From positions 1 through 63,894 of the forward strand of contig CALGNX010000024.1 in assembly GCA_937958265.1 (NCBI GenBank): a stretch of 63,894 nucleotides of DNA, given 5' to 3'. The number at the start of each line of letters is the position of its first letter. Positions within the stretch are counted from its first letter, which is position 1. The DNA is from an uncultured Algibacter sp. Lineage in GTDB: Bacteria; Bacteroidota; Bacteroidia; Flavobacteriales; Flavobacteriaceae. The notes beneath the pieces are model-generated. The model ran no database searches and was not told the origin of the DNA. It saw nothing but the letters and a program-made list of their open reading frames with translations. Shown here one piece after another: positions 39,810 to 61,014 of the stretch. Both the position numbers and the translations under genes were made by a program.

Positions 39810-40661
39810 TTAAGAGGCTTTTAAATGTTTTTTAAACAGCATAATATCTTCATACTTGTACTGAAAGTTAACGCTGTTAATAACACTTTCTTTTGTAGCA
39901 CCATCGAAGGGGTTTACGTTATATTTTTCGCCCATCCACTCACATAGTTCTATTATGCTTGACTTATTACTTGTAAAGTAGAAGAAATTGGTGTTATTTA
40001 AAACGTCTAAAACGTTTAAATAGTCTTTTAATTTCCAGTAGGAGTCGCTAGAGTAACTTTTAGTATCTGTTGATAGGTATGGTGGGTCTACAAGAAACAC
40101 CACATTAGGGTTGTTTTTAAAGCAATTAAAAAGCTCCTTATAATCTTTAGTAACAACTTTTAAGCCTTCTAAAAAACCTATTGCTAATGGTATGTCACTT
40201 TTACGCACACGATTGTATAGTGTTTGCTTTTCTAGCTCATTAATACTGGTGATATACTTACCCGAGAATAGTATAGAAGCAGATATTGTTATAATATCTA
40301 CATAACCATATTGCTTATTATGGGCTTTAATCGCTTTAATAACTTTGTCTTTATCAAAGGATGGTATTTTAAAATTTCTAGGAGTGTTAACAAGTATTTG
40401 CCTAATAATAAGCAATAATTCATTAGTATTCTTTATGTGTGATAAACGATTAGAAAAACCATCGAAATCATTATAAATAACTGTTGCATTTGGGTATATG
40501 TCTTTTACCGATCTGCTTAGAAGACCAGAGCCTCCAAATAGGTCTACATATATTGCATCACTTGGAAAGTTTTTTAGCGAGCTGCTAAATAATTTTAAGA
40601 AGCCACGTTTTTGGCCTTGAAATGGTAGTGGAGAATTTTTGTAAATTAAATTGTTTTTCAT
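39810..40661 (-). CDS. D12-class N6-adenine DNA methyltransferase
   Basis: 283 residues with motif X (PLPFQGQKRGF), motif I/SAM binding (YVDLFGGSGLLSR, ~38-50) and the catalytic DPPY at 192-195. This is the Dam/MboIIA-like D12 family; its target sequence cannot be read from the protein. No restriction partner is adjacent, so it is a solitary phage methylase, probably for protection from host restriction or for regulation. It is the last gene before the phage end, the same place as the mom modification gene in Mu. A large hairpin separates it from the upstream gene. Confidence 0.9.
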   Translation of the reverse strand: MKNNLIYKNSPLPFQGQKRGFLKLFSSSLKNFPSDAIYVDLFGGSGLLSRSVKDIYPNATVIYNDFDGFSNRLSHIKNTNELLLIIRQILVNTPRNFKIPSFDKDKVIKAIKAHNKQYGYVDIITISASILFSGKYITSINELEKQTLYNRVRKSDIPLAIGFLEGLKVVTKDYKELFNCFKNNPNVVFLVDPPYLSTDTKSYSSDSYWKLKDYLNVLDVLNNTNFFYFTSNKSSIIELCEWMGEKYNVNPFDGATKESVINSVNFQYKYEDIMLFKKHLKAS

Positions 40662-57756: not shown

Positions 57757-58247
57757 TGAAAGGACTTAGTGAAGAATTAGCCCGAAAAGCTAACGAGATG
57801 AAAGGCTTTTTAAACAATGGAGCTTTAGACATTGTAGAGGTCGAGGTGCTTAATAGCGTAGAAGAGGCTTTTGACAATGAGGGTTTTACAAACAGTAGCT
57901 TAAAAAAGTGGAAAAAACGCACCACTATAAATAGTAAAGGCAAAAACATTACGCGCTACCGCACTAACAGGGTGGGGCGCAAAGGCGACTTAAACAGTTA
58001 TGGGCGTAAAACCAAAGGGCGTGCTGTACTTACAGGGCATAATAGTGGTGGTAATAAACTTAGGGTTAGTTACCGCGCCTCTCGCTTTGGCGGTGGTGTG
58101 CGTTTTGCTACCGATAAAGCTTATGCAAAAAGGCACAACGAAGGTTTAGACGGCATGCCAAAACGTAAACACATTGGGGCATCGGTAGCCACCGACAAAC
58201 GCGTACTTAAAAAAATGAATACACGAATTGACAAAATAATGAAGTAA
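57756..58247 (+). CDS. Phage virion morphogenesis protein (gpG-like)
   Basis: 163 residues with a basic central region containing SSLKKWKKRTTINSKGKNI and RAVLTGHNSGGNKLRVSYRASRFGGGVRFATDKAYAKRHNEG, typical of the Mu gpG/P2 gpS-like virion-morphogenesis (tail completion) family. It overlaps the portal gene at ATG/TAA. Confidence 0.75.
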   Translation: MKGLSEELARKANEMKGFLNNGALDIVEVEVLNSVEEAFDNEGFTNSSLKKWKKRTTINSKGKNITRYRTNRVGRKGDLNSYGRKTKGRAVLTGHNSGGNKLRVSYRASRFGGGVRFATDKAYAKRHNEGLDGMPKRKHIGASVATDKRVLKKMNTRIDKIMK

Positions 58248-59452
58248 TGGAAAAGCAAACCTTAGACATTAAAAACACAGCAAGCAATGTAGCGCTTAGT
58301 AAAAAAGCCGAAAAGCTAGTCGTTGATTTGGTTAAAAGTTCTCACTCGGTATATCGTAAAGAAATAAACCATTGGCAACAAGCGCGTATGGCTAAAAATA
58401 GCCTACAGCACCCACGTCACTATTTATTACAACGCGTGTATAGAGATGCGATGTTAGACACGCATTTAACCGCCGTAATTGAAAATCGTATTTTACGTAT
58501 TCAAAATAAACGCTTTGTTATTACCGATCAAAACGGGGTAACTATTCCCGAAAAAACACAGCTTATTACCAAAAAATGGTTTTCCGATTTAGTACGTTAC
58601 GCTTTAGAAAGTGTGCATTTTGAATACTCATTAATACAATTTATTAAAGAGGGCAATGAGATTGTTGCGGTTAAAAATATAGATCGAGAGCACGTAAACC
58701 CCGATGCCTGTACTGTAGTAAAAAATGTAAGTGACGATAGTGGTTTAGATATTACTGCTTTTCCAAATGATTTGGCGCTTGTTAAACTATATGAAGGCGG
58801 TGGACTACTTGAAAAAGCAGTGCCACTTACCATACTTAAAAGGCACAGTTGGGCAAGCTGGGACGAGTTTGAGCAGATTTTTGGAATGCCTATTCGTATT
58901 GCTAAAATTGGCAGTATGAGCGATTCCGTTAAAAATGAAGTAGCTAGTTGGTTAGAAAGTATGGGTACGGCCTCTTACGGGGTGTTTCCTAATTTTGCCG
59001 AAATTGACATTAAAGAAGCTAATAATAGAGATGCTTTTAATGTGTTTATGAAAAAAATTGAAACCGTAGATGCGCAACTCTCTGTTTTAATTAATGGGCA
59101 AACTATGACCGTGCAAGACGGCAGTAGCCATAGCCAAGCCAGCGTACATCAAAAAACACAAGACGAAATATCCGAAGCCGACCTTAAAGGGTTTTTATAC
59201 TGGGCAAACGATGTGCTAGCACCTATACTGCGTAACCTTGGTTATGCTATTGCTGAAAATGAGAGTATTGGTGTAGAAAGGGTAACCGACCCTATAGAGA
59301 AAATGAAAACAGACGAGAAAATTATGACCCATAGTGGGTATCGTTTGTCCAAAGATTACCTTGAGCGTGTGTACGGGGTAGAGCTTGAAGAGCTACCAGA
59401 ACCACATAAACCAAACCCTACCCAAAAAGACCAGGACGAAAAAAAGAATTAA
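58247..59452 (+). CDS. Portal protein (DUF935)
   Basis: 401 residues of the Mu gp29/DUF935 portal type: a helical N-terminus (LVVDLVKSSHSVYRKEINHWQQARM), the core LEYSLIQFIKEGNEI...VNPDACTVV, and GVFPNFAEIDIKEANNRDAFNVF followed by SVLINGQTMTVQDGSSHSQASVHQ. The dodecameric portal forms the DNA gate. Its last codons are GAA AAA AAG AAT TAA, a slippery heptamer just before the stop, and the next ORF continues in the -1 frame. Confidence 0.88.
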   Translation: MEKQTLDIKNTASNVALSKKAEKLVVDLVKSSHSVYRKEINHWQQARMAKNSLQHPRHYLLQRVYRDAMLDTHLTAVIENRILRIQNKRFVITDQNGVTIPEKTQLITKKWFSDLVRYALESVHFEYSLIQFIKEGNEIVAVKNIDREHVNPDACTVVKNVSDDSGLDITAFPNDLALVKLYEGGGLLEKAVPLTILKRHSWASWDEFEQIFGMPIRIAKIGSMSDSVKNEVASWLESMGTASYGVFPNFAEIDIKEANNRDAFNVFMKKIETVDAQLSVLINGQTMTVQDGSSHSQASVHQKTQDEISEADLKGFLYWANDVLAPILRNLGYAIAENESIGVERVTDPIEKMKTDEKIMTHSGYRLSKDYLERVYGVELEELPEPHKPNPTQKDQDEKKN

Positions 59453-60609
59453 CGGCACTTGACTTATTTTACCGTTCACATTGCTGTGGTAGCAACGTGC
59501 AGTTAAGTGCCGATGAAACTCCGAATATTGATCCTGTTGTTGTAGATACTATTTTAAATAGCATTTTTACAGGTGCTACTGTGAATAGCAACGATTTATT
59601 TAAACAAACTTTAAACGTGTTTGAAACAGCATTGCAAAAAGGGTTTGGAAAAGACTTAAGCAATATTGCCTATAACACACCCGACTTTGAATTATTAAGC
59701 AATTTAAAATATAACGTAGGTGTATTTAGTGCCTTTAAAAACCATAGCCAAATAAGCGAAACTGTAAAATTACTTACAGGAGATGATGGGCGCATTCGCC
59801 CTTTTAAAAGCTTTAAAACCGAAGCCTTAAAACTAGATAGTAAATACAACAAACAATGGCTTAAAACCGAATACGACCAAGCGGTAACCAGTGCGCGATC
59901 TGCCCGAAGATGGAATGATATACAACGCACCAAAGATTTATACCCTAATTTACGCTATGTAGCCGTGGTAGATGATCGTACACGTGAAATACACAAAAAT
60001 TGGCACAATATAATACTGCCTATAGATCACCCTTTTTGGCAAACGCATTACCCACCTAACGACTACGGTTGCCGTTGCACCGTACGCCGTACTGACAAAG
60101 AGGTTAACGACTTAGGTGTTGATACTGAAAATATGCCCGAGTTACCACCACAGTTTAACACCAATGTGGGTACTAAAGGTAAAGTGTTTAACAATGAGCA
60201 CCCCTATTTTAAAACCTCAAATTTTAAAGAGGTGGCTTTGTTAGCGAATCGAAGCCTGTTTAAAATACAACGTAAAGAAATTATCGATACACTTAGGAGT
60301 AACAACATTATTGGTTCAAAGTTTACTTCTGAAATAGGCAGTGTGTTGGTTTCTAAGAAAGGAGTAAACGAAATTTTTGGAAATCCACACTCCAATAAAT
60401 ACTTGCGCAACAACATACTTTACGACATTGAACAAGTACTGAAAGATGCTACTTATATAAAATCGGGAGCCGATGCTAAAAATAACATAATGGTTAAAGA
60501 GTACCATTATATGATAGCCAATGCAGGCGGTTTAAAATTCTATCTTAATATAAGGGAACTTACAACAGGAGAGCTGATTCTTTATGCGATTACAGAGAAG
60601 CTGAAATAA
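58247..60609 (+). CDS. Predicted portal-MuF-nuclease fusion made by -1 frameshift
   Basis: If ribosomes slip -1 on A AAA AAG (59440-59446), residue 400 of the portal is followed by ELTALDLFYRSHCCGSNVQLS, then the complete MuF protein, giving about 787 residues. No stop interrupts the join, and between the in-frame TAA at 59407-59409 and the GTG at 59497 the MuF frame has no start codon. A perfect 8-bp stem starts 6 nt after the heptamer. The product would put a MuF/nuclease domain on a subset of portal subunits. Prediction from sequence only. Confidence 0.6.
59440..59512 (+). promoter_or_regulatory. Predicted -1 frameshift signal at the portal/MuF junction
   Basis: Heptamer A AAA AAG at 59440-59446, spacer AATTAA containing the portal stop, then CGGCACTT (59453-59460) pairing perfectly with AAGTGCCG (59505-59512). 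A second hairpin TTGCT-GTGGT-AGCAA (59481-59495) sits in the loop. The layout matches that of the tail chaperone site in this phage. Confidence 0.7.
59497..60609 (+). CDS. MuF/gpF head morphogenesis protein with C-terminal nuclease-like domain
   Basis: 370 residues counted from GTG at 59497, the only start-like codon after the portal stop. The upstream -1 frame (LDLFYRSHCCGSN) also looks coding. Residues ~118-200 are the MuF domain (YDQAVTSARSARRWNDIQRT, DDRTREIHKNWHN, PPNDYGCRCTVR). Residues ~255-370 carry a separate domain (SVLVSKKGVNEIFGNPH, KEYHYMIANAGGLKFYLNIREL, ELILYAITE) resembling BECR (barnase/EndoU/ColicinE5-RelE) nucleases attached to MuF toxins. It may be injected with DNA. Confidence 0.75.
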   Translation: MQLSADETPNIDPVVVDTILNSIFTGATVNSNDLFKQTLNVFETALQKGFGKDLSNIAYNTPDFELLSNLKYNVGVFSAFKNHSQISETVKLLTGDDGRIRPFKSFKTEALKLDSKYNKQWLKTEYDQAVTSARSARRWNDIQRTKDLYPNLRYVAVVDDRTREIHKNWHNIILPIDHPFWQTHYPPNDYGCRCTVRRTDKEVNDLGVDTENMPELPPQFNTNVGTKGKVFNNEHPYFKTSNFKEVALLANRSLFKIQRKEIIDTLRSNNIIGSKFTSEIGSVLVSKKGVNEIFGNPHSNKYLRNNILYDIEQVLKDATYIKSGADAKNNIMVKEYHYMIANAGGLKFYLNIRELTTGELILYAITEKLK

Positions 60610-60988: not shown

Positions 60989-61014
60989 AAAAGCCACCAA
61001 TTACGGTGGCTTTT
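60989..61014 (-). terminator. Terminator between 78-residue gene and HTH gene
   Basis: AAAAGCCACC / GGTGGCTTTT, a 10-bp stem with a 6-nt loop. On the minus strand it is followed by a run of T, ending the KilA-N/78-residue transcript. Confidence 0.8.

What the first reader, a model, noticed from the sequence alone, without database searches (positions are those of the whole stretch)
58247..60609. A second, unexpected frameshift signal joins portal and MuF into one ~787-residue protein
Seen: the MuF frame lies -1 to the portal and, from the in-frame TAA at 59407-59409 to the GTG at 59497, has no ATG, GTG or TTG in frame, although the intervening frame (ELTALDLFYRSHCCGSN) looks coding. Exactly at the end of the portal gene is A AAA AAG (59440-59446), then 6 nt, then a perfect 8-bp stem (59453-59460 with 59505-59512) with an extra hairpin in the loop. 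Known: this heptamer plus a 5-9-nt spacer and stem is the canonical bacterial -1 frameshift signal (dnaX, phage tail chaperones). Inference: a fraction of portals carry MuF plus a nuclease-like domain, fixing its copy number at the portal vertex. I know of no described frameshifting portal-MuF pair.
Basis: partly seen in the sequence, partly recalled or inferred. Interest (0 to 1): 0.92.

Follow-up and report, generated by a model that had tools for sequence, protein, structure and literature searches.

The report
Frameshift joins phage portal to MuF
A prophage in what looks like a flavobacterium appears to shift reading frame at the end of its DNA-portal gene so that some portal subunits carry an extra inner-head protein; the same kind of signal recurs in many relatives, in several sequence forms, which suggests these phages need both versions of the portal.

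Summary
The window's MuF frame is open from 59410, lies -1 to the portal and has no ATG/GTG/TTG before 59497. A AAA AAG (59440-59446) is in phase, followed by 6 nt and a 12-bp stem (z -3.1). Of 118 non-redundant Bacteroidota-type portal-MuF pairs, 108 have MuF in -1, and 98 of these have an in-phase slippery heptamer near the portal stop (U UUU UUC, A AAA AAR, A AAU UUY or G GGA AAR); by the same rule 1 of 43 distant control pairs has one. Stems, mostly 5-6 nt downstream, differ in sequence but pair; they are absent where the A run is 9 or longer, suggesting transcriptional slippage there. In 27 loci portal and MuF form one frame; 25 keep an in-phase heptamer, and slipping there leads to a stop. 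So the conserved outcome appears to be two portal forms, with and without MuF. A minority have another frame or no heptamer, often with an ATG at hand. 'Nuclease-like' is not supported: the C-terminus matches LPD3. I found no description in the papers searched. Expression, efficiency and stoichiometry are untested.

The parts
58247..59452 (+). Mu-type portal gene (Portal_Mu, PF06074), 401 aa, frame 0 of the recoding site
   Evidence: Pfam E 1e-60
59440..59446 (+). slippery heptamer A AAA AAG, in phase with portal codons AAA AAG; the A run is 59439-59445 (seven A)
59447..59452 (+). 6-nt spacer with the portal stop TAA at 59450-59452
59453..59464 (+). 5' arm of the downstream stem
59501..59512 (+). 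3' arm of the downstream stem
59477..59499 (+). extra hairpin inside the loop; pairs the only candidate start GTG 59497-59499
59410..60609 (+). open -1 frame holding MuF; entered at 59446 (GAA) after a tandem slip
59446..59496 (+). MuF N-terminal segment encoded before any ATG/GTG/TTG; holds Tyr (59470-59472, same in 33 of 33) and Cys (59485-59487, same in 31 of 33)
59497..59499 (+). first possible start codon (GTG) of a stand-alone MuF
59839..60084 (+). Phage_Mu_F domain match (PF04233)
60262..60570 (+). LPD3 domain match (PF18798), variable C-terminal position

Best explanation
This is a conserved recoding site at the portal-MuF junction of Bacteroidota Mu-like (pro)phages. Most ribosomes stop at the portal stop codon and make portal alone. 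A fraction slip back one base on A AAA AAG while the downstream stem stalls them, and continue into MuF, giving a portal-MuF-(C-terminal domain) fusion. Shown by sequence: signal, phase, spacer, stem, lack of a start codon, recurrence across Bacteroidota, coding character of the pre-start segment, and retention of in-phase signals where the two genes are in one frame. Inferred: that slippage happens, its efficiency, and its use, namely mixed portal rings that place a few MuF copies inside the head, as SPP1 gp7 (reported at one to three copies, bound to the portal) does by affinity. Where the A run is 9 or longer and no stem exists, slippage of RNA polymerase probably does the same job.
For: (1) 108 of 118 non-redundant Bacteroidota-type pairs have MuF in -1; 98 of these 108 have an in-phase heptamer in the last 120 nt. 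TTTTTTC not preceded by T: 44 of 44 in phase (44 of 45 counting longer T runs); 4 in 131 kb of portal body. Scored by one rule over all frames: 99 of 118 against 1 of 43 distant pairs. (2) Stems: in 74 loci without an A run of 9 or more, mean score 22.0 against 12.7 in shuffles, Wilcoxon 8e-14, 59 of 74 at p<=0.05, spacer 5-6 nt in 57 of 74; 46 different 5' hexamers among 72 stems, permuted arms pair at 53%. (3) A runs of 8 or less have stems (8 of 10 at p<=0.05); A runs of 9 or more do not (1 of 24); p 6e-5. (4) MuF homology starts before any ATG/GTG/TTG in 88 of 108; pre-start codon differences 114/97/219 at positions 1/2/3 over 563 codons in 20 pairs. (5) ATG near the portal stop, -1 pairs only: 7 of 98 with heptamer, 4 of 10 without, p 0.009; 8 of the 10 pairs in other frames also have one. 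(6) 27 one-frame portal-MuF loci, 25 with an in-phase heptamer whose slip leads to a stop; on the portal tree the fused state needs 10 changes, at least 9 forced by starred branches. (7) Sample taken by the portal family: 19 of 29 loci with a recognised MuF, window included, carry the signal.
Against: No expression data. 10 of the 108 -1 pairs have no heptamer of the classes scored, and 3 of these 10 (L124, L255, L110) have no ATG/GTG/TTG near the portal stop either, so my model does not explain them. L110 lacks the heptamer while its near neighbour L107 has it. 10 of 118 pairs are not in -1; of these L005 and L208 keep an in-phase heptamer that does not lead to MuF by a -1 slip. AAAAAAG alone is only weakly phased (19 of 41 in the overlap), because long A runs hold several phases. 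27 of 98 heptamer loci also have some ATG/GTG/TTG near the portal stop, so separate initiation may add product. If ATT/ATC/ATA/CTG are allowed too, the median distance from slip to the first such codon is 24 nt over 98 loci, though the window has none before 59497. 12 of 33 A2 members have a start codon at or before the conserved Tyr. The position-3 excess of the pre-start segment (2.3 times position 2) is smaller than in the MuF body (3.2 times). In the portal-based sample 10 of 29 show no signal. Query alignment A1 was built from ten loci that all carry the signal, so relatives are enriched for that lineage. No stem statistics were run on the one-frame loci.
Confidence: 0.9

Rival explanations
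1. MuF is made separately by re-initiation at GTG 59497 (or a near-cognate start) after the portal stop; the heptamer and stem are incidental.
For: GTG at 59497 lies 44 nt after the portal stop; 12 of 118 relatives have an ATG beside the portal stop and no heptamer scored, so separate MuF probably works in some phages.
Against: Would drop the segment with the Tyr kept in 33 of 33 and the Cys kept in 31 of 33; GTG 59497 is paired in the predicted loop hairpin; homology begins before any start in 88 of 108; the pre-start segment looks coding; in-phase signals are kept in 25 of 27 one-frame loci.
Confidence: 0.05
2. Transcriptional slippage, not ribosomal frameshifting, makes the switch in the window too.
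For: 24 of 34 A-class loci have an A run of 9 or more and, as a group, no stem; the nearest relative L180 has A10; nine is the length at which selection against such runs shows in many bacterial genomes (PMC1088944, passages).
Against: The window run is 7 A, below that length, and it has a 12-bp stem at the spacing of ribosomal sites; the T6C, A3T4 and G3A3G sites of relatives hold no homopolymer of 9.
Confidence: 0.06
3. Decayed or mis-sequenced gene: the frames were once joined and an indel in the seven-A run split them.
For: Homopolymer runs are error-prone; one-frame portal-MuF genes exist; a few relatives look disrupted (L208, L333).
Against: -1 arrangement in 108 of 118 pairs, including 44 with six T and a C; codon-position pattern of purifying selection in MuF.
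Confidence: 0.02

Closest known systems
dnaX (tau/gamma) recoding
   Same: Ribosomal A AAA AAG site in E. coli (recalled) and transcriptional slippage at nine A in T. thermophilus (PMC1088944 passage); two products from one gene; a slip that shortens the product, as proposed for the one-frame portal-MuF loci
   Different: Different genes; here the short product is the default in most loci and the long one in others
lambda-type tail assembly chaperone G/GT frameshift
   Same: Phage morphogenesis gene with a -1 site near the end of the upstream gene; this prophage seems to have one too, A AAA AAG at 49488-49482 on the minus strand
   Different: Chaperones of the tail; here the portal of the head and a minor head protein
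Capsid-extension frameshifts (phages T3, T7, A2, PSA; PMC5009743 passages)
   Same: A fraction of a structural protein gets a C-terminal extension
   Different: Shell or tail-shaft proteins, often with Ig-like extensions; here the portal is extended by MuF and a variable C-terminal domain
Retroviral Gag-Pol
   Same: Frameshift fuses a cargo to a structural protein, which helps to package it (PMC5009743 passage); the comparison with portal-MuF is mine
   Different: No relation by descent; no cleavage step known here
Portal-MuF single-gene fusions of Microbacterium phages (clusters EA3, EA5, EA8, EB; PMC7302621 passages)
   Same: Portal and MuF in one chain
   Different: No frameshift at that junction in the passages seen
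VIP2/MuF-like hits of PRFect (PMC10885494 passage)
   Same: Frameshift predictor output in actinobacteriophages that includes MuF-like genes; the authors argue that genes fused in some genomes may use a frameshift in others
   Different: The partner named is VIP2 toxin, not the portal; the word portal does not occur in the paper's main text
SPP1 gp6/gp7
   Same: MuF-type protein held at the portal in one to three copies (PMC5576092, PMC4493119, PMC6316719 passages)
   Different: Separate protein targeted by affinity, not covalent

Membership tests
Programmed -1 ribosomal frameshift site | X XXY YYZ heptamer in phase with the upstream gene, in the overlap with the -1 frame | tested here: met
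   A AAA AAG 59440-59446; 98 of 108 -1 pairs
Programmed -1 ribosomal frameshift site | Structure about 5-9 nt downstream | tested here: met
   12-bp stem, spacer 6, z -3.08; 59 of 74 loci without long A runs
Programmed -1 ribosomal frameshift site | Conservation across relatives | tested here: met
Programmed -1 ribosomal frameshift site | Measured frameshift product | not testable with these tools
   needs reporter or proteomics
Transcriptional slippage site | A or T run of 9 or more | tested here: not met
   window run is 7 A; 24 other A-class loci meet it
Mu-type portal (PF06074) | Pfam match above cut-off | tested here: met
   206.3 bits, cut-off 23.9
MuF (PF04233) | Pfam match, gene directly after the portal | tested here: met
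   60.2 bits, cut-off 29.6
MuF polymorphic toxin | C-terminal toxin domain | tested here: inconclusive
   LPD3 in the window, function unknown; CdiA_C in 17 of 33 MuF proteins of A2
MuF polymorphic toxin | Small immunity gene just downstream | tested here: inconclusive
   the next plus-strand ORF of 60 aa or more starts at 61013; shorter ORFs not examined

The most novel reading that the evidence does not exclude
Bacteroidota Mu-like phages build portal rings from two obligatory isoforms, with and without a covalently attached MuF-effector, and evolution preserves the two-product outcome rather than any one mechanism: ribosomal -1 slippage, transcriptional slippage, and an inverted version in which the default is the fusion and the slip makes portal alone. 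It would be a phage counterpart of Gag-Pol that sets the dose of injected cargo.
Probability: 0.55. Interest if true: 0.93.

Novelty: new variant of a known kind. Interest (0 to 1): 0.86.

Why it matters
If true, annotation misses or truncates MuF in a large group of phages (for example the MuF of Elizabethkingia phage TCUEAP3 is annotated from 275 nt after the portal stop although homology begins 22 nt before the end of the portal frame). It gives a simple answer to how a ring of portal subunits could carry a defined small number of MuF proteins, makes that stoichiometry testable by one codon change, and offers a natural experiment in which the same two-product outcome seems to be reached by different recoding mechanisms and even with the frames exchanged.

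Tried and rejected
Re-initiation at GTG 59497, sequencing error and transcriptional slippage as general explanations: see rivals. Dual coding in the one-frame T6C clade was examined: the -1 frame stays open for 26-32 codons in 12 of 12 (6% of background positions do) and zero-frame third positions differ less there (0.36 and 0.41 per codon against 0.60 elsewhere), but the ten pairs compared share sequences and are not independent, and part of the region is the stem. Nuclease-like domain: Pfam gives LPD3; the profile of 33 MuF proteins has one weak PDB hit at the C-terminus, an adhesin/hemolysin chain (4g6v, E 0.013), and the C-terminus of the AlphaFold model is of low confidence. Foldseek of that model against PDB: 0 matches with E<=0.001. 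DNA-level search of the phage collection with the window's two genes: no match. A first Fisher test (ATG near the stop in 7 of 98 with and 12 of 20 without heptamer, p 4e-7) mixed in ten pairs of other frames in which the heptamer had not been scored; the -1-only test is weaker (7 of 98 against 4 of 10, p 0.009) and is the one I rely on. Papers: no description of a portal-MuF frameshift in the listings or in the passages; no paper was read whole, and the library lacks most subscription journals and preprints.
Full report
WHAT IS IN THE WINDOW. The window is a whole contig of a 2.9-Mb genome with, in its right part, Mu-like head and tail genes. Portal (58247-59452, PF06074, E 1e-60) is followed by MuF (PF04233 plus LPD3) in the -1 frame. 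The MuF frame is open from 59410; its first ATG/GTG/TTG is GTG 59497, 44 nt after the portal stop. A AAA AAG at 59440-59446 is in phase, 6 nt follow, then a 12-bp stem 59453-59464/59501-59512 with an inner hairpin (z -3.08, 0 of 200 shuffles). A tandem slip would give a 787-residue, 89.8-kDa protein. The lysine tRNAs found among 34 tRNA hits in this genome are two UUU genes; the list is incomplete (no Phe or Ile tRNA appears in it), so absence of a CUU tRNA is not shown.

RELATIVES. Profile searches of 259 loci and the window gave 182 unique adjacent portal-MuF pairs. Of these 126 are close to the query family (MuF score 200 or more); removing near-copies leaves 118: 108 in -1, 7 in +1, 3 in frame 0. 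Of 143 loci (these 118 and 25 one-frame loci), 65 have a named phylum, and all 65 are Bacteroidota (Bacteroidia, Flavobacteriia, Cytophagia, Chitinophagia where the class is given); 78 have none.

SLIPPERY SITES. 98 of the 108 have an in-phase heptamer within 120 nt of the portal stop: T TTT TTC 44, A AAA AAR 34, A AAT TTY 10, G GGA AAR 7, T TTT TTT 3. Phase is the internal control: TTTTTTC not preceded by T 44 of 44 in phase (44 of 45 with longer T runs); AAATTTT 11 of 13; GGGAAAG 8 of 10; AAAAAAG only 19 of 41, since long A runs contain several phases. In 131 kb of portal body TTTTTTC occurs 4 times, 2 of them in phase. Scored by one rule regardless of MuF frame, 99 of 118 have a site, against 1 of 43 distant pairs outside this family.

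STEMS AND TWO MECHANISMS. Leaving aside A runs of 9 or more, 74 loci have a mean stem score of 22.0 against 12.7 for dinucleotide shuffles, 12.2 for a downstream and 11.3 for an upstream control; 59 of 74 reach p<=0.05 and 57 of 74 stems start 5 or 6 nt after the heptamer. The stems differ in sequence (46 different 5' hexamers in 72) and permuted arms pair at 53%, so complementarity, not sequence, is kept; stems were chosen as best-pairing, so the 100% figure for the real arms is by construction. Among A-type sites, runs of 8 or less have stems (8 of 10 at p<=0.05, mean 26.6) and runs of 9 or more do not (1 of 24, mean 12.4 against 12.5); p 6e-5. Nine is the length at which selection against A/T runs is evident in a large proportion of bacterial genomes, and T. 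thermophilus dnaX uses nine A for 50% slippage (PMC1088944, passages). The window (A7 with stem) belongs to the ribosomal kind; its nearest relative L180 (61% portal identity, A10, no significant stem) to the other.

THE PRE-START SEGMENT LOOKS CODING. Homology of MuF begins before any ATG/GTG/TTG in 88 of 108. In an alignment of 33 MuF proteins read from the slip site, Tyr 11 is the same in 33 of 33 and Cys 16 in 31 of 33; in 21 of 33 the first possible start lies after both. Codon-position differences in the pre-start segment of 20 pairs (one of them without any pre-start codon) are 114/97/219 over 563 codons; position 3 exceeds position 2 by 2.3 times, against 3.2 times in the MuF body. AlphaFold places a helix at residues 6-14 of this segment, at moderate confidence. 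Heptamer and own ATG tend to exclude each other: among -1 pairs an ATG lies near the portal stop in 7 of 98 with and 4 of 10 without heptamer (p 0.009); of the 10 pairs in other frames 8 have such an ATG, and 2 (L005, L208) keep an in-phase heptamer. Any start codon near the stop: 27 of 98 against 7 of 10 (p 0.01).

ONE-FRAME RELATIVES. 30 loci hold portal and MuF in one ORF, 27 with a strong portal match. 25 of these 27 have an in-phase heptamer near the junction (T6C 15, A-type 7, A3T4 2, G3A3G 1); in the T6C members it is followed by a stem at similar spacing, and the two A3T4 members have 11- and 12-bp stems; no shuffle test was run on this set. A -1 slip there reaches a stop within 9-96 nt (L108 and L253 have no site). 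L224-L226 are near-copies, so this is 23 of 25 distinct loci. In 12 T6C members the -1 frame stays open 26-32 codons (6% of background positions do) and third positions of the zero frame are constrained, as for double coding (pairs not independent). On a portal tree of 139 rows (95 slip, 24 fused, 20 own start or no site; quick method) the fused state needs 10 changes, at least 9 by starred branches, and the signal class 30 changes. The simplest reading is that selection keeps two products, whichever is the default.

SECOND SAMPLE. Searching by the portal family instead (44 of 395 genomes of the phylum, 16 of 395 of the order) gave 43 loci including the window. My portal profile found 42; in 13 no MuF was recognised; of the other 29, 18 have the -1 signal (window included), 1 is one-frame with a heptamer, 10 have none. 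It is not fully independent: L332, for one, shows the same junction as L138.

FUNCTION. MuF-type proteins sit at the portal inside the head: SPP1 gp7 binds the portal and is reported at one to two copies (PMC5576092) or three (PMC4493119), and is dispensable for assembly although only about 25% of virions lacking it are infectious (PMC6316719); all read as passages. C-terminal domains of the family vary: CdiA_C in 17 of 33 and LPD3 in 5 of 33 including the window, Gln_amidase in 1 of 10, as in MuF polymorphic toxins. I infer that frameshifting sets how many portal subunits carry MuF and its C-terminal domain. In one-frame relatives the same stoichiometry would need a much higher slip rate, which is an open problem for this reading.

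LITERATURE. In the listings and passages seen, portal-MuF fusions as single genes are described in Microbacterium phages (PMC7302621), effector domains fused to MuF or portal domains in polyvalent proteins (PMC5512222), and MuF toxins in Bacteroides prophages (PMC11699363), but no frameshift at the portal-MuF junction. The nearest hint is in the PRFect paper, whose predictions in actinobacteriophages include VIP2 and MuF-like genes, with the argument that genes fused in some genomes may use a frameshift in others (PMC10885494); 'portal' does not occur in its main text, nor in that of the GeneTack survey (PMC3711429), nor in the first 300,000 of 475,107 characters of the recoding review (PMC5009743). 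The paper describing Peternella_1 has no 'frameshift' in its main text (PMC8776804).

Noticed in passing
window 49820-49310, minus strand: Probable tail assembly chaperone pair: A AAA AAG at 49488-49482 in phase at the end of a 114-aa ORF, with an open -1 frame extension of about 55 codons.
   Followed up: partly
L096 (Elizabethkingia phage TCUEAP3), 2923-3223: MuF CDS is annotated from an ATG 275 nt after the portal stop although homology starts before the stop; the annotation would truncate the protein by about 100 residues.
   Followed up: partly
L110 and L107 (Capnocytophaga): Very similar portals; L107 has A AAA AAG with a long stem, L110 seems to keep the stem by eye but lacks the heptamer and has no start nearby.
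   Followed up: no
L005: MuF lies in the +1 frame behind an eleven-A run with a GTG just upstream; fits transcriptional slippage or own initiation better than -1 ribosomal slippage.
   Followed up: no
L208 and L333: Slippery site kept but MuF in frame 0 or cut short; disrupted copies or assembly errors.
   Followed up: no
window 39810-40661, minus strand: ORF that by eye resembles a DNA adenine methylase at the left side of the prophage region; not searched.
   Followed up: no
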